Assembly: GCA_011523385.1 (NCBI GenBank)
Contig: WTGX01000004.1
Location: 1-64,000 of the forward strand
Origin: Nitrospira sp.
GTDB lineage: Bacteria; Nitrospirota; Nitrospiria; Nitrospirales; UBA8639
Direction: 5' to 3'
DNA length: 64,000 bases
Shown here: positions 20,920 through 47,144 of the stretch, one piece after another
Layout: each line of letters begins with the position of its first letter
Position numbering within the stretch: position 1 is the first letter of the stretch
Notes under the pieces: model-generated
Databases searched by the model: none
Seen by the model: only the letters and a program-made list of their open reading frames with translations
What the model was told of the DNA's origin: nothing
Program-made: the position numbers and the translations under genes

Positions 20920-22385
20920 TGATTCCCCTCGCAGATCTGGTCACGATCCTCCCGGAACTGATCGTCGTGTCCGTCGCCTGTCTCCTGCTGGTGCTGGACC
21001 CGATCACCCCGTCGAATAAAAAAGACCTGCTGGCGTGGATGAGCGTCGCCACTCTGGGAATCTGTTTCATCATGACCGCCGGGAGCATGGGCGACCGGGT
21101 CTTTGCGTTCAGCGACCTCGTGGTCGTGGACGGGTATGCTTCGTTCTGGAAACTCTTGCTCTACGTCGTGAGCGGCATGACGATCCTGCTTTCCATCGGG
21201 TACCTCAAGGAAGAACGGATCGACCTGGCCGAATTCTACGGGTTCGTGCTGCTCTCCCTGACCGGCATGATGATCATGGTGTCCGGTGCCGACCTGCTGG
21301 TCATCTACCTGGGCATCGAGTTGATGTCCATCTCGCTCTATATTATGGCGGGCTTCAAGCGGTTTGAAGCCAGGTCCATCGAGTCATCGGCCAAGTACTT
21401 TATATTGGGCGCGTTCTCGTCCGGCCTCCTGCTCTACGGCATTTCGCTCATCTTCGGGGCCGCCGGCAGTACGCGCCTGGTCGAAATCGCCGCGGCAGTC
21501 GAGGCGCGCGGGCTCGACGACTCGCTGATCCTCATCGCCCTGATGCTTGTGATCGTGGGGTTCGGGTTCAAGGTGGCGGCCGTGCCGTTTCACATGTGGA
21601 CCCCGGACGTGTATCAGGGCGCGCCGACCTCGGTGACCGCGTTCATGGCCGTGGCGTCGAAAGCCGCGAGCTTCGGGGCATTCCTCCGGGTGATGCTCGA
21701 AGGCTTCGGGGGCATGAAACCGAATTGGAACGGGCTCATCCTGGGCGTGTGCATCCTGACCCTGATCCTGGGGAATCTCGTGGCCATCGTACAAACCAAC
21801 GTGAAGCGCATGCTGGCGTACTCGAGCATCGCGCACGCCGGTTATGCGTTGATCGGGCTGGTCGTGGCGGGATGGGTCGGAACCGGAGTCTCGGCCAAAG
21901 GCGTATCCAGCATGATGCTGTACCTGGCCGTCTATTCCTTCATGACCTTGGGGGCCTTCTCCATTGTGGCGATTCTTCGACGGGGCGGGAATGAAGGAGA
22001 AGACCTGGACGACTTCACCGGATTGGCCAAGCGCCACAAGGGCGCGGCGTTTTTGATGCTGCTCTTCATGGTGTCGCTCGCGGGCATCCCGCCGACTGCC
22101 GGGTTCATCGGAAAATTCTACTTGTTCATGGCCGCGGTCAACGCCGGACTGACGTGGCTGGCCGTGGTCGGGTTGATCTTCGCCGCGGTATCCGCCTTCT
22201 ACTACCTGCGCGTCGTCATGGTCATGTACATGCGCGAGCCTTCGCCGGACCAGGAGAACGAAACGCGCCTGGCCCTGTCCCCCACCGCCACCGTCGTCCT
22301 GGCCCTAGCTGCCGCCGGCGTCGTGCTGTTCGGTCTCTACCCCTGGCCCCTCGTCTCCCTCACCGCCACCGCCTCGCTACCCTGA
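20916..22385 (+). CDS. nuoN: NADH-quinone oxidoreductase subunit N
   Basis: NuoN is the third antiporter-like subunit, next to NuoK. The 489-residue protein has LLVIYLGIELMSISLYIMAGF with the conserved glutamate, GFGFKVAAVPFHMWTPDVYQGAPT with the channel lysine, and MLAYSSIAHAGY. The ATG overlaps the nuoM stop (a second ATG follows at 20919). It is the last gene of the operon and completes a full set of complex I subunits. Confidence 0.97.
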   Translation: MMIPLADLVTILPELIVVSVACLLLVLDPITPSNKKDLLAWMSVATLGICFIMTAGSMGDRVFAFSDLVVVDGYASFWKLLLYVVSGMTILLSIGYLKEERIDLAEFYGFVLLSLTGMMIMVSGADLLVIYLGIELMSISLYIMAGFKRFEARSIESSAKYFILGAFSSGLLLYGISLIFGAAGSTRLVEIAAAVEARGLDDSLILIALMLVIVGFGFKVAAVPFHMWTPDVYQGAPTSVTAFMAVASKAASFGAFLRVMLEGFGGMKPNWNGLILGVCILTLILGNLVAIVQTNVKRMLAYSSIAHAGYALIGLVVAGWVGTGVSAKGVSSMMLYLAVYSFMTLGAFSIVAILRRGGNEGEDLDDFTGLAKRHKGAAFLMLLFMVSLAGIPPTAGFIGKFYLFMAAVNAGLTWLAVVGLIFAAVSAFYYLRVVMVMYMREPSPDQENETRLALSPTATVVLALAAAGVVLFGLYPWPLVSLTATASLP

Positions 22386-22412
22386 CAATAAGCCTGACAG
22401 GCCCCAGTTGTC

Positions 22413-22446
22413 ATCCTCGACATCTTTAATCGAGGATCCAGGGTTT
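22413..22446 (+). terminator. Hairpin after nuoN, possible terminator
   Basis: ATCCTCGA (22413-22420) pairs with TCGAGGAT (22430-22437), and a short T run follows after CCAGGG. The shape matches the GTCATNCC...GGATCCAG repeat family, so it may be a repeat that also ends the nuo transcript. Confidence 0.45.
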
Positions 22447-22641
22447 TTGCCTATATCCTTTCTTTGCGAAGAGAGCGACCTTGGAACCTCGCTGTCGCAA
22501 GGATGGCAGAAGAGGTAGACAAGGATTCTCAATACCCCTTCATTCTGTCAGCGAATGGGAATATTGACAATTTCTGTGAAAACGGAAATCCGGGGTATTG
22601 GCCTGCCATCGTGAATACGCTATAAGTACAGGGTAGCCAAC

Positions 22642-22863
22642 CGTTACAAAGAGGAACGCCGCCATCTGCGTGCCCGCCTCGACGCGCTCTACTTCCACCT
22701 CTACGGCCTGACCAGGGAAGACGCGGAGTACGTACTGGACACCTTCCCCATCGTCCGCAAGGAAGACGAAGCCGCCTTCGGCCGCTACCGCACCCGTGAC
22801 CTCATCCTCGCCTACATGAACGCCCTCTCCGCCGGCGATACCGAGACCGTAGTGGCGGTTTAA
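22642..22863 (+). pseudogene. C-terminal relic of an Eco57I/PglX-like DNA methyltransferase, copy 1
   Basis: The frame ending at TAA 22861-22863 reads RYKEERRHLRARLDALYFHL followed by YGLTREDAEYVLDTFPIVRK and an RTRDLILAYMNALS block. This is the extreme C-terminus of large restriction-modification methyltransferases of the Eco57I/type IIG or BREX PglX kind, as I remember the family. There is no start codon or catalytic NPPY domain here, so it is a leftover. A second, nearly identical copy lies at 24586-24834, so the two bracket the HicBA genes. Confidence 0.7.
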
Positions 22864-22943
22864 ACGCTTCAGGCCTCTGTCGATAGGTATTAGGGCAATT
22901 TGCAATTTGAAACGAATTATGCTCCATATATTCTCCTCCACTT

Positions 22944-23108
22944 GGCAGGCTCTATGAAGTGCTGAGTGAGGGCGTTCATAACCTTCCCGAAGAAGAGTGC
23001 TTGAAGAAAGCGAATGCAACGAGCGACTGTCTTGCGTACCTGGTCAGCGAACTGGCTTCTCGAAAGGAAAATAGGACTCGTTTCAAGAGTACAGTCGGAA
23101 AACTTTGA
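22944..23108 (+). pseudogene. Relic of an unknown protein C-terminus
   Basis: The frame reads GRLYEVLSEGVHNLPEEECL and continues to TGA at 23106-23108. It opens just after a stop and has no start codon of its own with a ribosome site. The LYEVLSEGVH...EEECL pattern resembles the tail of uncharacterised accessory-region proteins. It is probably decayed. Confidence 0.4.
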
Positions 23109-23174
23109 GATTAACCATTTGTTCAGCAGATAAAATATCCTGAGGATATCACTATTGAAAGCTAGGAGACCATG

Positions 23175-23396
23175 ATGACCAAACAGTTGACAGCAATTAT
23201 CGAACGCGAAGGCGATGGTTACGTTGCCCTCTGCCCTGAGTTGGACATTGCGAGTCAGGGTGTAACCGTGGCTGAAGCGCGGGAAAATTTGAAAGAGGCG
23301 TTGGAGTTATTTTTTGAGACGGCTTCAGCCACCGAAATTCAGCATCGGCTGCATGAGGAAGTGTACGTGACAAAGGTCGAGATCGCCGTTGGCTAG
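23175..23396 (+). CDS. hicB: HicB-family antitoxin
   Basis: HicB neutralises the HicA mRNA interferase by covering its active site. The 73-residue protein has the partial RNase H-like fold: LTAIIEREGDGYVALCPELDIASQG followed by TVAEARENLKEALELFFE. There is no obvious C-terminal DNA-binding domain, so it is the short form. I prefer the ATG at 23175 with AGGAG six bases upstream over the ATG at 23172. The order is antitoxin first, toxin second, and the frames overlap by eight bases. Confidence 0.88.
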   Translation: MTKQLTAIIEREGDGYVALCPELDIASQGVTVAEARENLKEALELFFETASATEIQHRLHEEVYVTKVEIAVG

Positions 23397-23607
23397 ACTC
23401 CGAGCGTTATCGGGCAGAGAAGCCTGCGAGATACTTGCAGGGCACGGATTTGCCGAGGTCCGGCGCAGGAGTAGCCATGTCATCATGCAAAAAGTCGAAT
23501 CCGGTAGCACGATCACTGTCCCTGTTCCCGACCACAAGGAACTGAAGATGGGGACACTCATGTCAATCATTCGGCAATCGAGGCTGCCTAGAGTGGTGTT
23601 TGAGTAA
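23389..23607 (+). CDS. hicA: HicA-family mRNA interferase toxin
   Basis: HicA is a small double-stranded-RNA-binding-fold toxin that cleaves mRNA during translation. The 72-residue protein keeps the catalytic histidine in RRRSSHVIMQK (His30) and the LSGREACEILAGHGF and VPDHKELKMGTLMSIIRQ segments. It starts with TTG inside the end of hicB, a typical coupled arrangement. Both partners look intact, so the pair may be functional. Confidence 0.87.
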   Translation: MARLRALSGREACEILAGHGFAEVRRRSSHVIMQKVESGSTITVPVPDHKELKMGTLMSIIRQSRLPRVVFE

Positions 23608-23642
23608 CTTGCCGTTGTCCACGATTCGTTATTGATGTGCAG

Positions 23643-23981
23643 ATGAAGGGGAAGTTGAAGGTGGCTAAGGAGAGCGACGTGAGTCACCCCATCTATCGTG
23701 TGGTCTTTTTTGAAGTCCAGGCGCCCTATACGCTTCGAGTATGCTTCGACGATGAGACGGAACAGGTCATTGATTTCCGAACCATCTTGGAGGGCGAGAT
23801 ATTCGGTCCACTCCGGGATGAATCCTTATTCAGCCAAGTTCGGATTGATCCTGAGGTCCATACGTTGGTCTGGCCGAATGGGGCTGATTTTGATCCGGCG
23901 ACCCTGCATGACTGGCCCGAACGTCTCCCTGAACTTCAGAGAATGGCCAAACGCTGGACTCTTGCAGGGACGAAAAAGTAG
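23643..23981 (+). CDS. DUF2442-type small protein
   Basis: This protein of about 112 residues has a DUF2442-like core: YTLRVCFDDETEQVIDF, FGPLRDESLFSQVRIDPEV and TLVWPNGADFDPATLHDW. DUF2442 proteins are small, of unknown function, and are often found beside DUF4160 proteins in toxin-antitoxin-like pairs. No DUF4160 partner is visible here. It follows hicA by 35 bases. The start may be the GTG at 23637 or the ATG at 23643; neither has a strong ribosome site. Confidence 0.7.
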   Translation: MKGKLKVAKESDVSHPIYRVVFFEVQAPYTLRVCFDDETEQVIDFRTILEGEIFGPLRDESLFSQVRIDPEVHTLVWPNGADFDPATLHDWPERLPELQRMAKRWTLAGTKK

Positions 23982-24043
23982 CCTGCCATGGGCACAAGCG
24001 GACGTTATACTGTAGCATCATCCTCATCTAGGGAGGCAGCGCC

Positions 24044-24351
24044 ATGACGACTAAGGAGCGGGAGATGGAAGCGCTGGGGATCGAGTTTGAAAAGCAGGAA
24101 GCTGGGGCAACCGATTTGATGGAATTTTACGAAAAGGTCGAAAATATTTACGTCCAGGCATCCGCCTCTGTTTCTGAAAGCGAGGTCGTCTACTCCTCAG
24201 ATTCAACGAACATGACGAGGCCCAATACCTACTTGGGGGCAAGATTTTAACTGAACGCAACAAGTCCTCTACTCCTGTCTATACACCCGACTACGACCGC
24301 GTTCGCAGACAATGTTTGCAGCGGCTGCACGATCGACCGGGAGGGCAGTGA
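24044..24351 (+). pseudogene. Small unknown gene apparently split by a frameshift
   Basis: Frame one starts MTTKEREMEALGIEFEKQEAG at 24044 with GGGAGG upstream and ends at a TAA near 24250. From about 24211 the next frame reads HDEAQYLLGGKILTERNKSS followed by a TPDYDRVRRQCLQRLHDRPGG stretch, ending at TGA 24349-24351. The second part has protein-like composition and continues where the first becomes unlikely. A one-base insertion near 24208 would explain this. The function is unknown. Confidence 0.5.
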
Positions 24352-24407
24352 TGCTCTATGTGACTGCCTGGCTTGAGTCCCGCCCCAAAAGAGGGAGATA
24401 GACGGAT

Positions 24408-24584
24408 ATGACAACTCGTGAACCTGAATGTGTTGCATTGAAAAGACGTGGTGCGGAATACGTTGGGCAATTGTTATCAGGGAAGTCGAAACAGGAAGAG
24501 TTGGAGTTTTGGAGCAAGCGTACTGAACGTTTACGTTCTCGGCAAAAGCCGAACACATCGGAATCTGAGCAAGTTATTGTCTAG
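24408..24584 (+). CDS. Small unknown protein (58 residues)
   Basis: An ATG at 24408 opens a 58-codon frame beginning MTTREPECVALKRRGAEYVG and containing SKQEELEFWSKRTERLRSRQ. It begins like the gene at 24044 (MTT-E-E--AL), so the two may be distant relatives or share a family N-terminus. GAGGGAGA lies about ten bases upstream. The charged helical composition is compatible with a small antitoxin-like or regulatory protein, but I do not recognise it. Confidence 0.45.
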   Translation: MTTREPECVALKRRGAEYVGQLLSGKSKQEELEFWSKRTERLRSRQKPNTSESEQVIV

Positions 24585-24585
24585 C

Positions 24586-24834
24586 AAGTCTCTGCACGGT
24601 CTGCCCTTCGTCTGGGATGAAGAAGAACGCCGCCACCTGCGCGCCCGCCTCGACGCGCTCTACTTCCACCTCTACGGCCTGACCAGGGAAGACGCGGAAT
24701 ACGTGCCGGACACCTTCCCCATCGTCCGCAGGAAAGACGAAGCCGCCTTCGGCCACTACCGCACCCGCGACCTCATCCTCGCCTACATGAACGCCCTTTC
24801 TGCTGGCGACACCGACACGCAGGTAGCGATTTAG
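24586..24834 (+). pseudogene. C-terminal relic of an Eco57I/PglX-like DNA methyltransferase, copy 2
   Basis: The frame reads KSLHGLPFVWDEEERRHLRA, then LDALYFHLYGLTREDAEYVP and ends ALSAGDTDTQVAI. It is almost the same as the relic at 22642-22863 but extends about nine residues further upstream, including the PFVWDEEER motif usual before this tail. No catalytic domain is present. The duplicate tails suggest either two insertions next to methylase genes or recombination between two copies that removed the bodies. Confidence 0.7.
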
Positions 24835-25003
24835 AGAACGCATAGCTAAAACTGGATAGCGATTGAGGCTATTTAAGTGCTAGCGAGGAATTGTTTTCCA
24901 CCTGGGAGCCATGGATGCTGTGAAAGGATCTTATGAATATCATTGAATCTGGCATTGCCAAACTGGAAATTGGAATTATCTGGATGCTATGAGAGGTAGT
25001 GAG

Positions 25004-26023
25004 ATGACCCCAGACCCTATAAAATTTTTGTGCCTTTTGGAGGAACTGGAAACATCGTGCAAATTGCTCAAGGCCGGTTTGGGAGGTCTCCAAGAGATCG
25101 ACATGGGCAATGACTTTTACCATTTGCCCCACCAACTAATGGCAAGTGGTTTTGAGCGGTTCATGAAATGCTATATTGCGTTGGTATATGAAGGCCGAAA
25201 TTGTTCGTATCCAGATGTGAAATACATGAAGCAACTTGGCCATGATCTGGAAGCTCTTATCAAAAAGATCTGCACCGACTTCTACGGCGGAAAGACTCGC
25301 CCTTTCGTTCAGAAAGATCTCGACTTCATCATGACTGATCCGATTTTTCAAGAATGTATTCGAATTCTTTCTTTGTTTGGCCGGAAAGGGCGATACTACA
25401 ACCTTGACGTTGTTGCTGGCGGTACGGACAACCCGATTAATCCAGAAGAAGAGTGGGAATGCCTTGAGGCGCGCATTGAGGACGGTACGCCATTCTTGGA
25501 CGATCCCGAGTCGCTTTATCGAGACTATTATCCACGAGTGCATTCTCAATTGATCGCAAAGCTGGAACGATTTATCAGAGCGATTGCTCGGCAATTCACC
25601 ATCGGGGGGCACGCTGACCAACATGGGAGACTCCAGCAGACCTCAGCCGTATATAGGGAATTCCTAATGCTTAGTGATGAGCAACTTGGAACCATCGACT
25701 ACCGTCGTTCCGCACGGATTCGTCAGCAAGAACAAGAGAACTGGATAAAGCGATCGGAGCAAGAGATTTTCAACGGTAAGTGGCCAACGCGAACAGTCAC
25801 GAAAGCTGGGTTTGGAGAAGAGTGGCCATTTCGAACCAATCGCGTCATTGTTGAATGCCAAGAAAATCAGTTCTGCATTGTTAACATTGATGGCTATGAT
25901 TTCGCGCTCAACGGTGCTGCTCAAAGCCGTTTCAAGATGCCGTTTCCACATGACGCAGGTCTTGCAGTGCTTGGGAAATCGGTCGGTCCGTTCATCGACA
26001 TGGCCTTCGCACTTCGTAAATAG
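25004..26023 (+). CDS. Unknown 339-residue protein with a HEPN-like N-terminal region
   Basis: I do not recognise this family. The N-terminal part is helical, with FERFMKCYIALVYEGRN followed by KQLGHDLEALIKKI; that pairing of a length-conserved helix with GHDL is seen in HEPN and AbiV-like proteins of defence systems. I cannot find a clear R-x4-6-H catalytic motif. The C-terminal part is mixed alpha/beta. I choose the ATG at 25004 because AGAGG is seven bases upstream. Codon use is more A+T-rich than in the nuo genes. It lies next to a broken membrane gene on the same strand, within the toxin-antitoxin island, so a defence role is possible but unproven. Confidence 0.75.
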   Translation: MTPDPIKFLCLLEELETSCKLLKAGLGGLQEIDMGNDFYHLPHQLMASGFERFMKCYIALVYEGRNCSYPDVKYMKQLGHDLEALIKKICTDFYGGKTRPFVQKDLDFIMTDPIFQECIRILSLFGRKGRYYNLDVVAGGTDNPINPEEEWECLEARIEDGTPFLDDPESLYRDYYPRVHSQLIAKLERFIRAIARQFTIGGHADQHGRLQQTSAVYREFLMLSDEQLGTIDYRRSARIRQQEQENWIKRSEQEIFNGKWPTRTVTKAGFGEEWPFRTNRVIVECQENQFCIVNIDGYDFALNGAAQSRFKMPFPHDAGLAVLGKSVGPFIDMAFALRK

Positions 26024-26046
26024 GCAGATTTGTGATTTCGAACCCC

Positions 26047-26079
26047 GTAGGTCGGATTAGCCGAAAGCGTAATCCGACA
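26047..26079. repeat. Interspersed inverted repeat GTAGGTCGGATTA...TAATCCGAC
   Basis: GTCGGATTA (26051-26059) pairs with TAATCCGAC (26070-26078). It lies between the HEPN-like gene and the membrane gene. This repeat type is widespread in unrelated bacteria. Confidence 0.7.
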
Positions 26080-26122
26080 GCCGCATCAGTCGATATCCGA
26101 TGGCAGGAAAGGAGTTTTCTTC

Positions 26123-27154
26123 ATGGCCAGCGAAAACCAGATGAACCAGTTGAAGAATGTGGCAAATGAAATTTTAAGCATTGACGAAAATAAATTGTTA
26201 CGGCCCTCATTGGGTGAAGAATCCCTCAAGGAGGATTTTGCTCCTAAATGGTTGGCAATACAGAAAAAAGTCAAGTTTTTACTCCAATACTCACACGAAT
26301 TACATGATGAACAAATACAGAATATTTTCGGCACGCTTAATTCAATTAGGGGGCAAATGCAACAACAGGCGCAGGGTCAAAATGCGGACTACGTAGCGCG
26401 CCGCCCTGGGTTTTTGACTAATATCGATCAGCAACTTGAAGAACTAAAACGGTATTGGCCGCCTGTCGTGACTGCAGCGGTAGAAGCGCGCAGATTTCTT
26501 GAAGATGAGGGTGTACGCCAGGAATACGAACAGACGATCGAATCCATAAAGAAAGAATCCGAGAGCGCATTACAGCAAGTTCAGGGAGAAGCACAAAAAA
26601 CTATTGAGGAAGCACGCGTTCTTGCAGAACAAATTGAGAAACGTGCGCGGTTAACCGCAGCCAGAATTTCTGTGAAAGAGGCGCAGGAATAATTTCAACA
26701 GGCCCAAGCCGCGCTTGACAAACAAGTGAAGATTTGGGCCAGCCTAGGATCCGTCTGTATCGTAGGTTTTATCGGTGTCGCTCTATACTTCATAACAGTA
26801 GATCTGCCTGAAGATTGGCGTTGGCAGGTGATTTACTATAGTGCTATTCGGGTCTCAATCCTCACGGCAATAGGCACCACAGCGACTTTCTGTTTGAAAA
26901 TACTGCGCGCCCAGTTGCATATGCGTGAAAAGAACAGGCATCGGCAACGTGTCGCAAACAGCATGGAAGCCTTTGTAGCGTCGGCAGTGACACCCGAGCA
27001 AAGAGATTTGATACTAAGTCAGCTTGTAGAGTCTGTTGTACAATTCGGCAATTCCGGTTTGGTTCAGCGAGAAGACGACCACGTATATCGGCCTAGGATG
27101 ACCATAGATTCGATTAACAGAACACTTTCAACGAATCCTCAGAAGGATGTGTAG
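26123..27154 (+). pseudogene. Coiled-coil membrane protein gene interrupted by one in-frame TAA
   Basis: A strong AAAGGAG site precedes the ATG at 26123. Codons 1-189 encode a helical protein ending in a long coiled coil (EQTIESIKKESESALQQVQG onward). TAA at 26690-26692 interrupts, but the same frame continues without another stop to 27154, keeping the coiled coil (FQQAQAALDKQ) and adding two membrane helices (IWASLGSVCIVGFIGVALYF and a second near residue 235). One C-to-T change of CAA to TAA would explain it. The second half has no good start of its own. The intact product would be 343 residues, membrane-anchored, function unknown. Confidence 0.75.
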
Positions 27155-27186
27155 CCTTCATAGAAAAACACATGGATAGTTGCTTT

Positions 27187-27208
27187 GACTGGTCTGACTG
27201 GTTATAAT
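27187..27208 (+). promoter_or_regulatory. Promoter/operator of the first Phd/VapC pair
   Basis: A perfect TATAAT lies at 27203-27208, only seven bases before the ATG. Two direct GACTGGT copies (27187-27193 and 27196-27202) abut it and could be the antitoxin operator. No Shine-Dalgarno site fits between, so the transcript is probably leaderless. Confidence 0.5.
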
Positions 27209-27215
27209 AACGAGC

Positions 27216-27491
27216 ATGGCTATTACGTATTCGGCATACGACGCCAAGGCACGGTTTTCTGAGGTCCTGCGGCAGGTACGCGATGGGAAGACGGTCACGG
27301 TTTCTTATCGGGGAAAGCCCGTGGCCGAGATTCGCGCGATCCGGGATACGCCTGCGACGATCGAAGTGCGACTCGATGACCTGGAACGGCAAGGGATTGT
27401 AGTTGGCTCGGGCGAGCCCAGGAAGCCCATGGAAGCCGTAAGACGTCGGCCAGGCGCACTCAAGCGGTTTCTCGCCGAACGTGACGAATGA
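27216..27491 (+). CDS. Phd/YefM-family antitoxin
   Basis: The 91-residue protein has the Phd/YefM N-terminal fold: YSAYDAKARFSEVLRQVRDGKTVTVSYRGKPVAEI. These antitoxins bind their own operator as dimers and mask the toxin with the C-terminal tail. The stop overlaps the start of a PIN-domain toxin by four bases. It has TATAAT just upstream but no ribosome site, so leaderless translation is likely. Confidence 0.9.
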   Translation: MAITYSAYDAKARFSEVLRQVRDGKTVTVSYRGKPVAEIRAIRDTPATIEVRLDDLERQGIVVGSGEPRKPMEAVRRRPGALKRFLAERDE

Positions 27492-27868
27492 GCGTCGCCT
27501 ACGTCGACACGTCCGCACTCGTTGCTGTTGCCTTCAACGAACGGGGTGCGGCTGCCCTCGCCAGACGACTGGATGCATGTTCGAGGCTCCTGTCCTCGAA
27601 TTTGCTTGAGGCTGAACTGCGTGCCGCATTCTCACGCGAGGGAAACCGATTCGAACCTCGTCTTGTCTCCAGCATTGAGTGGGTCCTGCCGGATCGGCCT
27701 CTGACCCACGAGTTCGAGAGGGTGCTCCAGGTCGGCTATTTGCGGGGTGCCGATCTGTGGCATATCGCGACGGCCCTCTACCTTGCCCGGGAGCCCAGCG
27801 GAATTTCGTTCGTCACGCTCGACGGCCGGCAGCGGACCGTGGCCGCGGCACTCGGATTTCAGATCTAA
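27488..27868 (+). CDS. vapC: VapC-type PIN-domain ribonuclease toxin
   Basis: PIN toxins cut tRNA or rRNA using a cluster of acidic residues holding metal. The 126-residue protein has all four positions: Asp in AYVDTSALVAV, Glu in LLEAELRAAF, Asp in RGADLWHIATAL and Asp in VTLDGRQRTVA. It is translationally coupled to the Phd-type antitoxin upstream. It looks intact. Confidence 0.9.
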   Translation: MSVAYVDTSALVAVAFNERGAAALARRLDACSRLLSSNLLEAELRAAFSREGNRFEPRLVSSIEWVLPDRPLTHEFERVLQVGYLRGADLWHIATALYLAREPSGISFVTLDGRQRTVAAALGFQI

Positions 27869-28074
27869 CACTCCTTCACAGCGTGCAAACACGAAGATGG
27901 ATTTCCCATCTCAAGTATGTATAAATATTTTACATTGACGCTGAAAAGAAAATTGACGTGACTTATACTCAGAGATGTTCGTGTCGGTAAGAAGTTGAAG
28001 CATTGCGATCTTCACGAGAATTCTCCATGCAGGTTTGCAGTCTGCACGCCAGGAGATGAAAAGGAAAAAAGACA

Positions 28075-28101
28075 CTGGATTCCTGCTTCCACAGGAATGA
28101 C
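28075..28101. repeat. Interspersed inverted repeat CTGGATTCCTG...CAGGAATGAC
   Basis: ATTCCTG and CAGGAAT arms flank a short loop. It is the same general family as 7575-7655. Apart from this I see no gene in the 27869-28162 gap. Confidence 0.6.
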
Positions 28102-28162
28102 GGATTCGGGGTGTTTTTGGCTATTTTTATGCCAATAGCAGGAAGCGAGGCAGGATAGAGCC

Positions 28163-28931
28163 GTGCTTGGAAAATTTATTCAACGGCAACGAACCGAGCG
28201 TAACATGACGCAAAGCGTATCTTGCGTCAGAGCTTGGGATGTCTCGCCCCACGTATATGCACATTGAGCGCGGTGAGCGGGAGCTTACGGTTATCGAAGC
28301 CCGAACGCTTGCGGGGATTTTTGATATGTCGCTGGAAGATTTTTTGGCTGGCCGCGAGTCCAGGCATACCGTGACGCTTACAAAACAGCCTGCACGAAAA
28401 ACCGGAGATCTTCGCATTCGCGTTGAGGGAAAAAAGCTCGATAGATTCAAGCAGGTGCTTCTGTATGTCTTGAATAAAGTCGGCGGCAAGCCGAATGTCG
28501 GTGAGGCCGCGCTTCATAAGCTGTTGTATTTCGTCGATTTTGATTATTACGAAAAATTCGAGGAAAACTTAATGGGTGCGACGTATATCAAGAATCATCA
28601 CGGTCCCACTTCGGTTGAATTGGGTAAGATTTTGGAAGAGATGCAAAAGGGTCGAGAGATCGAGGTGGTCAATAGTCAATATTTTAAATACACTCAAAAG
28701 AAGTACCTCCCCCTCAAGCGACCGAACCTTGCGATATTGTCTGCGCGCGACGTTGAACATATTGACGGTGTGCTGGCCCGTCTATCCGATAAAAACGCCA
28801 AAGAGATGGAACGCTATTCACACGAAGATATTCCCTGGAAATCCGCGCAAGACGGCCAGCCGCTTTCGTATGAGAGCGTCTTTTATCGTGATGAGAGGTA
28901 CTCCGTACGAAACTATGACGATGACCTTTGA
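28163..28931 (+). CDS. Panacea (SocA/DUF4065) antitoxin with a frameshift in its HTH domain
   Basis: The Panacea domain is intact from about 28440 (DRFKQVLLYVLNKVGGKPN, ALHKLLYFVDFDYYEKFEEN, MGATYIKNHHGPTS). Panacea domains are antitoxin modules that neutralise many different toxins. Upstream an XRE-type HTH is split across frames: GTG 28163 (AGGA seven bases upstream) encodes LGKFIQRQRTERNMTQ, and the HTH resumes one base out of frame as AYLASELGMSRPTYMHIERGE. One extra A near 28215 would cause this. An ATG at 28239 could still express a shortened HTH plus the whole Panacea domain. The toxin gene overlaps its end. Confidence 0.8.
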
Positions 28932-29238
28932 TGAACTGCCGGAATTTCAAAAAGAACGTAAACGCCTTGCCAGGAAATACCGATCACTTTCCGAAGATCT
29001 CCGGGAGTTTCGGAACGTTGTTTCCGTTGGCCCGCTTGGGAATCAGAAGCATTTTGCCGTCATCGCATGGGACGAGAATTTGCACATTGTCAAGGCCCGC
29101 TTATTTTGCCGATATCTGAAAGGATCGTCCCTTCGCGTCATCTACTCGTATTTTGAGCAGGAACAACGCATTGAATTTATCGAGATTTATTTCAAAGGAG
29201 ATAAAGACAACGAAGACCGTCAGAACGAGCGGTTGTAG
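28915..29238 (+). CDS. RelE/HigB-like toxin paired with the Panacea antitoxin
   Basis: The 107-residue protein has a RelE-like layout: an N-terminal helix pair (FQKERKRLARKYRSLSEDLREFR), then strands with GNQKHFAVIAWDENLHIVKARLFCRYLKG and a C-terminal IYSYFEQEQRIEFIEIYFKGDK typical of HigB/RelE toxins that cut mRNA on the ribosome. The ATG at 28915 lies 17 bases inside the antitoxin gene. The 3' end overlaps the convergent autotransporter gene by 19 bases. Confidence 0.82.
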   Translation: MTMTFDELPEFQKERKRLARKYRSLSEDLREFRNVVSVGPLGNQKHFAVIAWDENLHIVKARLFCRYLKGSSLRVIYSYFEQEQRIEFIEIYFKGDKDNEDRQNERL

Positions 29239-32284: not shown

Positions 32285-32617
32285 CTATCCTGCTGTGTCT
32301 CTCAGAGCCAGCGAAAATAGAATCGCCTCTCGTACCTGTGTCATTAACCGTTCAGGAAGTTCTCCTAACTTGCGTTCGAGACGAGCATGCACGAGTGATC
32401 CTATGCCTTGGACGTTGACTGTTGATTCCTCGTTTAGAAATGGAAGTTTGCCGAATTGAACTCCGTAACGGCTTCCGCGGTACTGAGTGGTGAGCGGCAC
32501 ATAGACCACGAGTGCCCGGGGTGAAGAGGGATCACGGCGCGAGACGATAAGGATCGGGCGTCGTTTGGCTGCTAATCCAAGGTCAGCAAGCCAGATCTCG
32601 CCTGGCTTAGTTGTCAT
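32285..32617 (-). CDS. mazF: MazF/PemK-type mRNA interferase toxin
   Basis: The 110-residue protein has the MazF/PemK signature: GEIWLADLG at the start, KRRPILIVSRRD with the conserved arginine, and VVYVPLTTQYRGSRYGVQF. MazF-type toxins cut single-stranded mRNA at short sequences. Its start overlaps the end of a 58-codon gene that is the probable antitoxin (11 bases). Confidence 0.88.
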   Translation of the reverse strand: MTTKPGEIWLADLGLAAKRRPILIVSRRDPSSPRALVVYVPLTTQYRGSRYGVQFGKLPFLNEESTVNVQGIGSLVHARLERKLGELPERLMTQVREAILFSLALRDTAG

Positions 32618-42876: not shown

Positions 42877-43350
42877 ATGATCCGCTACATGTCTTTTCCT
42901 TTGCAGGAGTGGCGAAAGGCTCGACAGTACTCCATCGTCAAATTGGCGGCCGAGTCCGGCATTGAAGGGGCCGTGATTCAAGCGATTGAAGCCGGAGAGA
43001 CGGATCCCTCCGTCTCAACGGTGGAGGCATTGGCCAAGGCCCTCGTGATTCCTCCTTCCTGGTTGTACAGTGCCCCCTGGGCTCTCGATTTGTTGTTGGG
43101 GGATCCCGACGAAGAAGACTCCCCCTATCTCAACCTTGATTCCCCTGATCCCGTGACCGAACAGATTCTCCGCGGGAGTCGAGCTGAACGGGATTTGTAC
43201 GTGCTCCTCACGGCCCTGCTGCGCCATGGCGAACCCAAACTCCTCCGTGCCGCCGAAGTCAATCTTCGAAGTCTGCTCAAGCAGGCCAAGACGACGACGG
43301 TTCCATGGCAGAGTCGTCCCTCAGGCCATTTTGAACCGCCGAGTGACTGA
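42877..43350 (+). CDS. XRE-family HTH protein
   Basis: The 157-residue protein has an N-terminal HTH: MSFPLQEWRKARQYSIVKLA, SGIEGAVIQAIEAGETDPSV and TVEALAKALVIPPSWL. The C-terminal half is unlike known ligand domains. It may repress its own region or the small genes downstream; a palindromic site lies at 43431-43458. The start could be the ATG at 42877 or 42889, neither with a clear ribosome site. Confidence 0.8.
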   Translation: MIRYMSFPLQEWRKARQYSIVKLAAESGIEGAVIQAIEAGETDPSVSTVEALAKALVIPPSWLYSAPWALDLLLGDPDEEDSPYLNLDSPDPVTEQILRGSRAERDLYVLLTALLRHGEPKLLRAAEVNLRSLLKQAKTTTVPWQSRPSGHFEPPSD

Positions 43351-43430
43351 ATGAAGGCATGGCCGGCACCGCGGGTTCATTCCCGTTTTACGGCGTTTCT
43401 TGGGACTTAGCCTGATAACTTGACAGTAGC

Positions 43431-43458
43431 ATAATTGTCCCAACATTGAGACAATTAT
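43431..43458. promoter_or_regulatory. Inverted repeat ATAATTGTC...GACAATTAT, possible operator
   Basis: Nine-base exact arms (43431-43439 and 43450-43458) have a ten-base spacer, and a third AATTGTC half-site follows at about 43464. It lies between an HTH gene and the A+T-rich small-gene patch. A 33-codon frame (ATG 43459) starts immediately after it but may be chance. Confidence 0.5.
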
Positions 43459-43556
43459 ATGCCAATTGTCTTAACAGATAATCAACAAACGAGGGTTGGT
43501 GAAAAGTTCAAAATTGAACTCTTTCAGTCTGCTGATTTATTAAAAAACCAATGGGG

Positions 43557-43751
43557 TTAGACGAAAAACACGCGAAGGGTAATAGCAGAAAGTAGGGCAG
43601 CCATATAACCACCAATCCACAAAATGATGGTGAATTTTCCATCCAGATTAGACAATTTCACCATCACGTCTCCAAACTGTTTCTCAATTCCCTGGTATCG
43701 TTCAGCACATTCTTTTTCATGTTTCGCAAGAGCTTCTTCCCATAATTCCAC
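43557..43751 (-). CDS. Small coiled-coil membrane protein (holin-accessory-like)
   Basis: GTG at 43751 has a perfect AGGAGG five bases upstream. The 64-residue product has a charged coiled-coil-like N-terminal half (EEALAKHEKECAERYQGIEK) and a C-terminal hydrophobic helix (TIILWIGGYMAALLSAITLR). This layout is like the phage XhlA family of holin-associated proteins, but similarity is only in outline. Confidence 0.6.
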   Translation of the reverse strand: MELWEEALAKHEKECAERYQGIEKQFGDVMVKLSNLDGKFTIILWIGGYMAALLSAITLRVFFV

Positions 43752-43927
43752 AGTAACCTCCTTATTCTCTCTTTCTCTCTTGTATATACCGGAGGACTAT
43801 GAAAAAAGCAACTCAGTAGTTTTTCAAGGCTTCTTCAGCTTCAAGATCGTACTCAACGCAAGATTTCACCATAAATGAGGGGAAGAGTCGCTATGGGCGA
43901 CCGTTGGGTGAATACTATCTCGGAAAA

Positions 43928-44212
43928 TTATTTACATCCCCAGTCTGCCGAAATAGGAAGCAATGCCCCACCATAATGGACCAAGGTGGCGCGGTAGATA
44001 TGCCTAGCTCCCTGTTGCCACGACAATAAGGTTTCTTTTTGCGAACTAGGGGCATCAATGAGTACGTCATACGTCAGTGTTGAAAGGAGGTGCTTCATGC
44101 CGACAGAAAATCCCCCAAACACCTTGCTGTCGATATGGGCCACTTTTCCAGCCCATTCGAAACACAAGCCTTTATAGTCTTTCCACGCCCCATCTTTTTG
44201 TAGTTCTGTCAA
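43928..44212 (-). CDS. Unknown protein, possibly longer with a disrupted signal peptide
   Basis: The 94-residue frame from TTG 44212 contains CFEWAGKVAHIDSKVFGGFS and LLSWQQGARHIYRATLVHYG. The same frame extends upstream through a Pro-Lys repeat (KPKPKPKP) to a TGA at 44366-44368 and beyond it to ATG 44416, where it reads MKYNPDSLSSLFLILS before the stop. That looks like a secretion or lipoprotein signal ended by one nonsense codon. Either the short form is the gene or the gene is broken. Confidence 0.5.
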   Translation of the reverse strand: MTELQKDGAWKDYKGLCFEWAGKVAHIDSKVFGGFSVGMKHLLSTLTYDVLIDAPSSQKETLLSWQQGARHIYRATLVHYGGALLPISADWGCK

Positions 44213-44486
44213 CCCACTGTCATGGGCAAACAGTCGGTTTACTTCGTAAAACGCGACCTTAGATACAATCGGTTTGGGTTTCGGCTTGGGCTTGACGGGA
44301 GCCGCTGACCCTCCTAGATTGAGCCAGACAAGCCCAACACAAGGTCGGGAAACCGTAGCAGGTTGTCAGGAGAGAATCAAGAAAAGAGAAGAAAGAGAGT
44401 CAGGGTTGTATTTCATCTAAGACTTTGATATGCCTAGGTATTATTATGTATATCAAGGAAGTCTGATTATGGATGATTTAGCTTAT

Positions 44487-44789
44487 TTACTCCTGTTTGT
44501 CACCGTTCCCTTGGTTATCCTCATGGGTGGAATGTTTCTTTTTAAGTTCTTCAGGATCTGAAGGATCATCTTCATCTCTGATAAGATCTTTGGAAAGAGC
44601 GAGTGTCCCACCAATCAAGGCCATTAAGGGAGCTTCTAAAATATCCCATGCTTCTGTTGCTGTCATGTTTTCTGTCCCCAAAACCATAACAAGAAACATG
44701 AAAACAACAGCTAGGTAAGCTGCGCCCATCAAGATCAACACATTGGTTTTAATGACCACTTTCTTTCGACTTGAGTCGCTTCCCCACAT
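44487..44789 (-). CDS. Small membrane protein of unknown function
   Basis: ATG at 44789 has AGGAGG eight to nine bases upstream. The 100-residue protein has two hydrophobic segments (LILMGAAYLAVVFMFLVMVL and APLMALIGGTLAL) and a very charged C-terminus (RDEDDPSDPEELKKKHSTHE). Holins and small anchoring proteins share this plan. It belongs to an A+T-rich patch of minus-strand small genes. Confidence 0.65.
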   Translation of the reverse strand: MWGSDSSRKKVVIKTNVLILMGAAYLAVVFMFLVMVLGTENMTATEAWDILEAPLMALIGGTLALSKDLIRDEDDPSDPEELKKKHSTHEDNQGNGDKQE

Positions 44790-44886
44790 AGCAGCATCCT
44801 CCTTTCTTTCTGATGAAAAGATATTGGCATACTTTTAAGGTATTAATAAGTCTTATGGGCGATTCACGTAATTAACGGAGAGTTAA

Positions 44887-45162
44887 ATGAAAATTCAAAA
44901 GGACGGCAACGGACAACCTTACATCGAATGGCTACAATCAAAGGACAACTACAAGCGTGCGTGGATACAGAAAAGAGAAGGTGACAATGATTTTGCAGGG
45001 ACAGGTCGGTATCTCAATGTTGTTCGGTGTAATGAGCCGGGGCATCCTGGTGGCAATCCAGCCGATTTTCCCATCTACAATGAGTTACCTGATGAACAGA
45101 TTCTATTGGCTTTTGTATACACTACGAATGCCATTACTGGCTTGTCAGATAGCAGCTTCTGA
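44887..45162 (+). CDS. Small unknown protein (91 residues)
   Basis: ATG at 44887 has GGAGAG six bases upstream. The product reads MKIQKDGNGQPYIEWLQSKD, KRAWIQKREGDNDFAGTGRY and NPADFPIYNELPDEQILLAF. It is soluble and of unknown function. It is divergent from the small membrane gene, with about 97 bases between them, and is the last gene before rpoD. Confidence 0.6.
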   Translation: MKIQKDGNGQPYIEWLQSKDNYKRAWIQKREGDNDFAGTGRYLNVVRCNEPGHPGGNPADFPIYNELPDEQILLAFVYTTNAITGLSDSSF

Positions 45163-45341
45163 GTTGACGCCGTTAAGTATATAATTCCTATGTCAAGTTA
45201 TCGGGTTAAGTCTCCGTTTCTTGCATTCGTCGTTTCCTTTTCAATACGATAGAGAGTTACGGTTTTTCATGCGTTCTCTCCTTCTGCACGAGAACGAAGT
45301 TATTATTAATTATCCCCGAAAACGTGAAAGAGGAATAAGAG

Positions 45342-47144
45342 ATGCCCAAGAACAGTGGCCTCCGGAATATGAAACCGATTACGGGTAGGGAAAAAGAGCC
45401 AACCAACTTTGAAGGAATGAACGCCCCCTTGCTCCCGGAGAGAGGTTCTTCGCAAGAGTTTTCGGCGTTGGTTGCCACGTTGGATGAGGAGACCGTTGAG
45501 CAGGCAGCCGTCTTTCAAAATGAAAGCCTCGAATCCCAAATGAAGACCGAGCCTGTGACCCCGGCCGATGAACCAGGAGAAGCGTTGCCGGAAACCGAGA
45601 AAGAAATCGATCTGACTCCCGGTACGGCCAACAGGATAGATGATCCCGTTCGTTTATATCTCAATGAGATGGCCGGTGTGTCTCTGCTCTCAAGGGAAGG
45701 GGAGATCGAGTTAGCGAAGAAGATCGAAGAGGGCAAGGAGGAGATGACGCGGGCGATTGCGGGGCTGCCGATGACCCTGGAGACCCTGGAGACCTGGCGG
45801 GGGCGGCTGAAGAAGCGGGAAGTGAGCGTGGGGGCCGTGGTGCTGGTGCATGACCCGGGAGACGAGGACCTGGAGGACCCGGAAGTGGCCGAGGCGCAGG
45901 AAGAAGAAGAATTACGGCACCAGGCCTTGGCGGACTTGGACCAGGTGCGGCGGTTGGGCAAGACGCTACGGCGGCTGTATGACCGGCGGCGGGCGGCCCC
46001 GGCGGCGCAGCAGGCGCGGTGGAGCGCCAAGGTGCGGGGCGTGCAGGCCCAATTGGGGGCGCGGGTGGAGGGGCTGCACCTGCAACCGGCGGTGCGGGAG
46101 GCGTTAGTGAGCCAGATCAAAGAAGCCGGCCGGACGGTGCGGCAGGCGGAACGGCGGCTGCGGGAGTGCTGCCAGCGGCTGGGGCAGCCGGCCCCGGAGG
46201 GCCTGAAACTCCTGGGGCGGTTGAGCCGGGCGGGGGCGTCGGCGGCGGCCCTGCGGCGGCAGGCGGGGCTCAGTGAAGCCGTGGTGCGGCAAGTCGTGGC
46301 GCGGAGCCAGGAAGCCCGGGCCACCCTCAAACACGTGGAGCGGCACGCCACCTTGCTGCCGACGGCCGAGTTCAAACGCGCCCTGGTGGGGTTGGAATGG
46401 GCGGAAGACAAGATGAAACGGGGCAAAGCCGAACTCATCGAAGCGAACCTGCGGTTGGTGGTGAGCATTGCCAAGAAATACACGAACCGGGGGCTGCAAT
46501 TTCTGGATTTGATCCAGGAAGGGAACATCGGGCTGATGAAAGCCGTGGATAAGTTTGAATACCAGCGGGGGTACAAATTCAGCACGTATGCGACGTGGTG
46601 GATTCGGCAAGCGATCACGCGGGCGATTGCGGATCAGGCGCGGACCATCCGGATCCCGGTGCACATGATCGAAACGATCAACAAGCTGGTGCGGACCTCG
46701 CGGCATCTGGTGCAACAATTGGGGCGGGAACCGACGCCGGAAGAGATTGGGGTGCGGATGGAGATGCCGTTGGAGAAAGTGCGGAAGATTCTGAAGATTG
46801 CGAAAGAACCGATTTCGTTGGAGACGCCGATCGGGGAAGAAGAAGACAGCCACCTGGGGGACTTCATCGAGGATAAGAAAGCGGTTTCGCCGTTGGAGGC
46901 GGCGGTGCGGTACGACTTGCAGCGGCACATCGGGAAATCGCTGGAATCCTTGACGGCGCGGGAGGAGAAGGTGTTGCGGAAACGGTTTGGGATCGGGGAG
47001 GCGACGGACCACACGTTGGAAGAAGTGGGGCAGGACTTTGAGGTGACGCGGGAGCGGATCCGGCAGATCGAAGCGAAGGCGTTGCGCAAACTCCGCCATC
47101 CGAGCCGGAGCAAGAAACTGCGCAGTTTCGCCGAAGGCTTTTAA
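45342..47144 (+). CDS. rpoD: Primary-type RNA polymerase sigma-70 factor
   Basis: The 600-residue protein has an acidic N-terminus, region 1.2 ([20 protein letters not shown]), a long non-conserved region (about 135-350), regions 2.1-2.4 ([40 protein letters not shown]), region 3 and region 4.2 ([20 protein letters not shown]). These recognise standard -10 and -35 boxes. The ribosome site is AGAGGAATAAGAG. From about 45720 onward codons are almost all GGG, CGG and GCG, whereas the first 125 codons are ordinary. Confidence 0.95.

What the first reader, a model, noticed from the sequence alone, without database searches (positions are those of the whole stretch)
25004..27154. Candidate undescribed two-gene system: HEPN-like protein plus coiled-coil membrane protein
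An unrecognised 339-residue protein with HEPN-like helices is followed on the same strand by a gene for a coiled-coil protein with two C-terminal membrane helices. Nucleotide-targeting plus membrane-anchored partners are a common plan for abortive-infection systems. The island context supports this. I do not recognise either family.
Basis: inference. Interest (0 to 1): 0.6.

Follow-up and report, generated by a model that had tools for sequence, protein, structure and literature searches.

The report
Plug-in gene of bacterial restriction systems
The first gene is an intact copy of a rare, undescribed helper gene that elsewhere is built into several quite different DNA-methylating anti-phage systems, while the second is a broken gene from an unrelated family that happens to lie next to it, so the proposed two-gene system is not real but the first gene is worth testing.

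Summary
Gene 1 (25004-26023, 339 aa) is real and intact. Six full-length relatives (40-65% identity), from Planctomycetes, Hydrogenedentota, Rhodothermales, Acidobacteria, Bacteroidales and one unclassified MAG, show its setting. In four of six loci with visible context it sits against a methylase-system gene: twice between hsdM and hsdS of type I restriction-modification with 4-bp overlaps on both sides, once overlapping drmMI (after drmD), once after HmaC. In the window it follows a leftover 3' end of a type IIG/DrmMI-like methylase, in a decaying hotspot downstream of nuoN. The proposed partner (26123-27154) has an in-frame stop. Its nearest relative, in the same genus, has no gene 1 beside it, and no other gene 1 locus carries it. 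The two-gene system is therefore rejected. HEPN membership is not shown: no profile or fold match, no Rx4-6H motif, only R130-x4-D135 plus an invariant H80. Best reading: a portable accessory, probably a backup effector, of methylase-centred restriction systems, orphaned here. The mechanism is inferred.

The parts
25004..26023 (+). Gene 1: 339-aa accessory protein, intact
   Evidence: Open frame; six full-length relatives at 40-65% identity; AlphaFold2 mean pLDDT 84.8
25004..25612 (+). Gene 1 N-terminal all-helical domain (residues 1-203). Across 13 near and remote relatives E14, G49, E51, K55, G79, H80, L122, R130 and W151 are invariant
   Evidence: AlphaFold2 pLDDT 86, pTM 0.85; alignment of 13 sequences
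25793..25936 (+). DUF2511 / YebY-like C-terminal domain (residues 264-311 by profile; the fold runs to about residue 336)
   Evidence: PF10709 22.2 bits, cut-off 21; PHROG 2950 E=3.5e-7; Foldseek YebY 7n0j and MlbQ, probability 1.00, E 0.08-0.3
24596..24834 (+). 3' remnant of a type IIG/DrmMI-like DNA methylase gene directly upstream of gene 1 (tail copy 2, inside ORF 24448-24834)
   Evidence: 90% identical to the 3' end of the methylase in the same-genus genome G011 (L014 14396-14628), which matches PADLOC type IIG/DrmMI models
22649..22867 (+). Second copy of the same methylase 3' remnant (tail copy 1), just after nuoN
   Evidence: 90% identical to copy 2 over 214 nt; local alignment
26051..26078 (+). 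Dispersed palindrome GTCGGATTAG..GCGTAATCCGAC between the two genes
   Evidence: Four exact-arm copies in the genome
26123..27154 (+). Gene 2: broken gene of a separate coiled-coil, two-membrane-helix family; in-frame TAA at 26690-26692. Neighbour, not a demonstrated partner
   Evidence: intact relatives of about 338-355 aa in L023, L024, L025, L026 and L055

Best explanation
Gene 1 is an orphaned, intact copy of a rare, horizontally moving accessory gene of methylase-centred restriction systems (type I R-M, drmD-drmMI, Hma, and here probably a type IIG/DrmMI-like methylase). It does not form a system with gene 2, which is a decayed gene of another family in the same integration hotspot downstream of nuoN. 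Most likely mechanism: the protein docks on the restriction-methylation complex, probably through its DUF2511 domain, and is held quiet there. When the complex is disabled or overloaded during infection, the N-terminal helical domain, with its invariant E/K/H/R set, acts as a backup effector, as PrrC does beside type I enzymes. Shown: gene structure, domains, operon linkage, loss of the methylase here, absence of a conserved pair (together about 0.8). Inferred: docking, silencing, effector activity (about 0.35). The confidence given is for the whole.
For: Start and stop codons overlap (ATGA) on both sides of gene 1 between hsdM and hsdS in Planctomycetaceae L035 and Hydrogenedentota L005, and its start codon lies inside the end of drmMI in Acidobacteria L036. 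The hsdM (L005), hsdS (L002, L005), DrmD, DrmMI, HmaB and HmaC identities come from PADLOC, gene orders. A methylase tail lies directly upstream in the window. Gene 1 has GC 0.476 and GC3 0.50, against 0.616 and 0.85 for nuoN. It is very rare: own copy plus one remote relative in 396 genomes of the phylum, scattered over several phyla. R-M-linked effectors silenced by the R-M complex are an established plan (PMC3710099), as are auxiliary nucleases in BREX and DUF499/Hma loci (PMC12839542). The own genome still holds many N6-methylase genes with which an orphan could work.
Against: No catalytic activity is identified, and the N-domain matches nothing in PDB or BFVD. Two relatives show no methylase nearby: L006 (Bacteroidales) stands alone, and L034 is split by an IS. 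L003 is too short upstream to tell. A non-toxic structural or specificity role would fit the same gene order. Remote relatives that share only the N-domain (L012 and plasmid proteins) lie outside R-M operons, so the domain can act without one. Four linked loci is a small number.
Confidence: 0.45

Rival explanations
1. Gene 1 is a non-toxic structural or regulatory subunit of the methylase complex (an adaptor or stabiliser, or a modulator of methylation or restriction), not a killing effector.
For: It sits between hsdM and hsdS with 4-bp overlaps, as expected for a stoichiometric subunit. It tolerates very different host systems. DUF2511/YebY has no known toxic role, and no nuclease motif is recognised.
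Against: Type I, DrmD-DrmMI and Hma complexes share little architecture, so one structural subunit for all is less natural than a plug-in effector. The invariant polar set E14/E51/K55/H80/R130 across remote, non-R-M relatives looks like an active or ligand site.
Confidence: 0.25
2. Gene 1 is a true HEPN ribonuclease of the kind already catalogued beside R-M systems, with D in place of the motif histidine and the histidine supplied elsewhere (as in HEPN-T and AbiV). This is a sub-case of the backup-effector reading.
For: All-helical domain. R130-x4-D135 with N133 is invariant in the seven orthologues, and a separate H80 is invariant in all thirteen relatives. PMC3710099 describes this D-for-H substitution with an alternative H in HEPN-T, the alternative H also in AbiV, and at least 16 R-M-linked HEPN clades.
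Against: No HEPN hit in Pfam, NCBIfam or PADLOC, even at E up to 10 in Pfam; no HEPN structure among the listed matches with a meaningful score; profile comparison with AbiV gave nothing.
Confidence: 0.3
3. One reading: genes 1 and 2 form a two-gene abortive-infection system with a membrane-anchored partner.
For: Same strand, 99 bp apart, similar low GC (0.476 and 0.458). Gene 2 relatives also occur in defence settings: a BREX-like locus with PglX (L026), HNH plus methylases (L025), and an array with Hhe and AbiH (L055).
Against: Gene 2 is broken. No gene 2 relative at any other gene 1 locus, and only one of six gene 1 genomes has a distant relative, on another contig. The same-genus copy of gene 2 (86.8% over 136 residues) has no gene 1. 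A dispersed palindrome separates them.
Confidence: 0.04
4. Gene 1 is a drifting remnant with no present function, on its way out like its neighbours.
For: It lies among two methylase tail fragments and a broken gene 2. Other copies also sit in damage: the hsdM next to it in L035 is about 290 residues shorter than the L005 hsdM and lacks the NPP motif, and L034 is split by an IS.
Against: A 339-codon frame without a stop, conserved at all invariant positions. The genome has many other methylase systems.
Confidence: 0.2

Closest known systems
PrrC (anticodon nuclease inside the PrrI type I R-M operon) and other R-M-linked HEPN effectors (PMC3710099)
   Same: A non-restriction gene embedded between or beside hsdM/hsdS genes; plausible backup logic
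   Different: Gene 1 has no ABC ATPase domain and no recognisable HEPN or anticodon-nuclease domain, carries a DUF2511 domain instead, and occurs with type I, drmD-drmMI and Hma systems alike
Auxiliary and backup effectors of BREX and DUF499-centred (Hma, 'BR') systems (PMC12839542)
   Same: Accessory genes immediately adjacent to or within core methylase loci, including an HmaB/HmaC-like locus in L041
   Different: The nuclease superfamilies listed there (HEPN, PIN, Schlafen, TOPRIM/OLD, HNH, HKD, PD-(D/E)XK) were not recognised in gene 1
YebY / DUF2511 (PF10709) and MlbQ
   Same: The C-terminal domain of gene 1 has this fold and the WPF and LNG signatures
   Different: YebY is a small stand-alone protein (93-95 residues in 7n0j) and MlbQ a lipoprotein; gene 1 has no hydrophobic segment that could be a membrane helix and fuses the domain to a 200-residue helical domain
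Plasmid-borne hypothetical proteins such as WP_001576903.1 (IncX plasmid), WP_303570781.1, WP_063216956.1 and WP_154800688.1
   Same: Share the N-terminal domain invariants E14, E51, K55, H80, R130 and W151 at about 17-18% identity to gene 1
   Different: Lack DUF2511 and are not inside R-M operons
DUF6161 (PF19658), for gene 2
   Same: A Vibrio tubiashii relative of the gene 2 family matches it weakly (23.8 bits, cut-off 27)
   Different: Below the curated cut-off; gene 2 itself does not match

Membership tests
HEPN superfamily | Sequence match to a HEPN profile | tested here: not met
   No HEPN family for gene 1 in Pfam, NCBIfam or PADLOC, nor for nine relatives at E up to 10 in Pfam
HEPN superfamily | Rx4-6H motif | tested here: inconclusive
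   R130-x4-D135 instead; H80 invariant elsewhere. The substitution is known in HEPN-T, with an alternative H also in AbiV (PMC3710099)
HEPN superfamily | HEPN helical-bundle fold | tested here: inconclusive
   Helical bundle predicted with good confidence; Foldseek finds no HEPN structure with a meaningful score
HEPN superfamily | Ribonuclease activity | not testable with these tools
   Needs biochemistry
DUF2511 (PF10709) | Profile score above Pfam's gathering cut-off and YebY-like fold (C-terminal domain only) | tested here: met
   22.2 bits, cut-off 21; YebY 7n0j probability 1.00
R-M / methylase-system accessory gene | Operonic position inside or directly after methylase-system core genes in several independent loci | tested here: met
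   L035, L005 (hsdM-gene-hsdS), L036 (drmD-drmMI-gene), L041 (HmaB-HmaC-gene): 4 of 6 relatives with visible context
R-M / methylase-system accessory gene | Intact methylase partner adjacent in the window itself | tested here: not met
   Only two 3' remnants remain
PrrC / RloC | SbcC/Rad50-like ABC ATPase fused to the nuclease | tested here: not met
   No ATPase domain in gene 1
   TAA inside gene 2 at 26690-26692
   None of the other seven gene 1 loci has it; G011 has gene 2 without gene 1

The most novel reading that the evidence does not exclude
Gene 1 founds a new plug-in effector family. A previously unrecognised helical domain, with a fold and active-site set not related to HEPN, is carried between architecturally unrelated methylase systems (type I R-M, DISARM-type, Hma, type IIG-like) by a DUF2511 module that senses or docks on a feature all of them share.
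Probability: 0.3. Interest if true: 0.65.

Novelty: new variant of a known kind. Interest (0 to 1): 0.42.

Why it matters
If right, one small gene can be added to several unrelated methylation-based defences, so something common to those systems (methylase complex state, unmodified DNA, a shared product) must control it. The question is directly testable because compact natural operons exist (hsdM-gene1-hsdS in L005). It would also give DUF2511, known so far from YebY-type and phage proteins, a first role in immunity. It further corrects a tempting but wrong pairing of neighbouring genes in a decayed defence hotspot.

Tried and rejected
Two-gene system: rejected on pair absence and the stop codon. 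HEPN by profile: Pfam, NCBIfam, PADLOC negative. HEPN via AbiV: ten AbiV domains fetched and compared with hhalign, nothing. HEPN by fold: full model and N-domain against PDB, N-domain against viral models, no match beyond helical-bundle noise for the N-domain. Viral origin: no gene 1 or gene 2 relative confirmed in viral contigs, no gene 1 relative in phage records. Weak PADLOC hits of gene 2 to LeoBC/LeoC and Csx27 are taken as coiled-coil or membrane background. A direct measure of selection on gene 1 was not attempted, since the nearest relative is only 64-65% identical.

Full report
WHAT IS THERE. Gene 1 is an intact 339-codon frame at 25004-26023 (+). Its base composition (GC 0.476, GC3 0.50) differs sharply from nuoN next door (0.616, 0.85), so it looks foreign to this genome. 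Gene 2, at 26123-27154 in the same direction, is interrupted by a TAA at 26690-26692. Read through for comparison only, it is a 343-residue protein: a long helical/coiled-coil part, then one strong and one weaker hydrophobic stretch, then a tail. The intact relative L023 shows both membrane helices clearly. Between the genes, 26051-26078 is a palindrome that occurs four times in this 2.5-Mb genome.

DOMAINS OF GENE 1. The C-terminal part is DUF2511 (PF10709, 22.2 bits, cut-off 21; PHROG 2950). AlphaFold2 on seven natural relatives gives mean pLDDT 84.8, and Foldseek matches this part to E. coli YebY and to MlbQ with probability 1.00, although E-values are only 0.08-0.3. The N-terminal 200 residues fold on their own as a confident helical domain (pLDDT 86, pTM 0.85) but match nothing convincing in PDB or viral models. 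Nine residues are invariant across seven orthologues and six remote N-domain-only relatives, most of them on plasmids: E14, G49, E51, K55, G79, H80, L122, R130, W151.

IS IT HEPN? Not shown. There is no profile match and no fold match, and a profile-profile test against AbiV was negative. There is no canonical Rx4-6H. What is there, R130-x4-D135 plus a distant invariant H80, is the pattern that Anantharaman et al. (PMC3710099) report for HEPN-T variants, where D replaces H and another conserved H may contribute; they note an alternative H in AbiV too. So HEPN stays possible and unproven.

WHERE ITS RELATIVES LIVE. One scan of 84,980 species genomes gave six relatives. In Planctomycetaceae (L002/L035) and Hydrogenedentota (L005) the gene lies between hsdM and hsdS with ATGA overlaps on both sides (PADLOC for hsdS in both and hsdM in L005; the L035 hsdM was recognised by its similarity to that of L005). 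In Acidobacteria (L007/L036) it follows drmD and drmMI, its start codon lying within the end of drmMI; no drmA/B/C was recognised by eye in the downstream 10 kb, and the upstream side is cut by the contig end. In Rhodothermales (L004/L041) it follows HmaB and HmaC/DUF499, with helicase-like genes upstream. In Bacteroidales (L006) it stands alone near RelE- and HTH-like genes. In L003 the contig shows too little upstream. A further Planctomycetota copy (L034) is split by a transposase. That is four linked loci out of six with visible context, in three kinds of system. In 396 genomes of the window's own phylum only the own copy and one remote relative appeared, so the gene is rare and, by its scatter over phyla, mobile.

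THE WINDOW'S LOCUS. In the same-genus genome G011 the same site, directly after nuoN, holds a long methylase gene, itself in pieces, that matches type IIG/DrmMI models. The window retains only two copies of the 3' end of that gene (22649-22867 and 24596-24834, about 90% alike). Gene 1 begins 170 bp after the second copy. The setting, accessory gene after methylase, is therefore the same as elsewhere, with the methylase lost. This last step, that gene 1 came with this methylase, is inference: G011 has the methylase but a 102-codon ORF and a broken gene 2 in place of gene 1.

THE PAIR. No gene 2 relative lies near any other gene 1. Six gene 1 genomes were searched whole: five have none, one (G428) has a 24% relative on another contig beside PglX. 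Gene 2 relatives otherwise lie beside an HNH gene and methylases (L025), in a defence array on a Vibrio plasmid with Hhe, a HEPN-associated protein and AbiH (L055), or with no defence gene in view (L023, L024). Gene 2 is thus its own family, probably also defence-linked, but not gene 1's partner.

HOW IT PROBABLY WORKS. Best supported: an accessory protein of methylase-centred restriction. Inferred: DUF2511 as docking or sensing part, the helical domain as effector released when restriction fails, by analogy with PrrC (PMC3710099) and with the backup effectors catalogued for BREX and DUF499/Hma loci (PMC12839542). Main rival: a non-toxic subunit. The organism still has many N6-methylase genes, so an orphan could serve in trans.

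KNOWN OR NEW. No paper in the searchable library links DUF2511 to phage defence (three unrelated hits). The plan (effector or accessory embedded in R-M) is known; the protein family and its use by three system types appear undescribed. Limits: open-access literature only, small number of loci, mostly MAG contigs.

Noticed in passing
window 23172-23607: HicBA-like toxin-antitoxin pair (HicA PF07927, E=2.1e-15) between the two methylase tail copies. An 81-nt piece around the HicB start is also 90% identical at the G011 hotspot.
   Followed up: partly
window 27216-27868: Phd/YefM antitoxin followed by a PIN-domain toxin, directly after the broken gene 2.
   Followed up: partly
window 28239-29238: HTH plus SocA/Panacea-domain antitoxin (PF13274, E=4.9e-16) followed by a RelE/ParE-looking ORF ending at 29238: a likely Panacea-type toxin-antitoxin pair.
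   Followed up: no
window 32285-32617 (-): ORF that reads like a MazF/PemK toxin.
   Followed up: no
window 22385-29220: The stretch between nuoN and the S8-peptidase gene is a variable hotspot: in G011 the same site carries a methylase, a broken gene 2, a TOPRIM/DUF4435-looking protein and an ATPase.
   Followed up: partly
L035 9723-10916: The hsdM beside gene 1 in the Planctomycetaceae genome lacks the NPP motif and is about 290 residues shorter than that of L005, while gene 1 and hsdS are intact; possibly a real deletion, possibly an assembly error.
   Followed up: partly
L034 9228-11700: A gene 1 relative in a Planctomycetota genome is split by a transposase-like ORF; a second, similar transposase ORF lies nearby.
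   Followed up: no
own genome, contigs C3-C38: Sixteen N6_Mtase (PF02384) matches above cut-off in a 2.5-Mb genome: unusually rich in methylase systems.
   Followed up: no
L055 8944-9960: Gene 2 relative on Vibrio tubiashii plasmid pFP31 in an array of evenly spaced small genes with Hhe, a HEPN-associated protein, GIY-YIG and AbiH, resembling a cassette array.
   Followed up: no
window 43350-45342: Low-GC gap of about 2 kb without an ORF of 110 aa or more, upstream of tRNA-Met.
   Followed up: no
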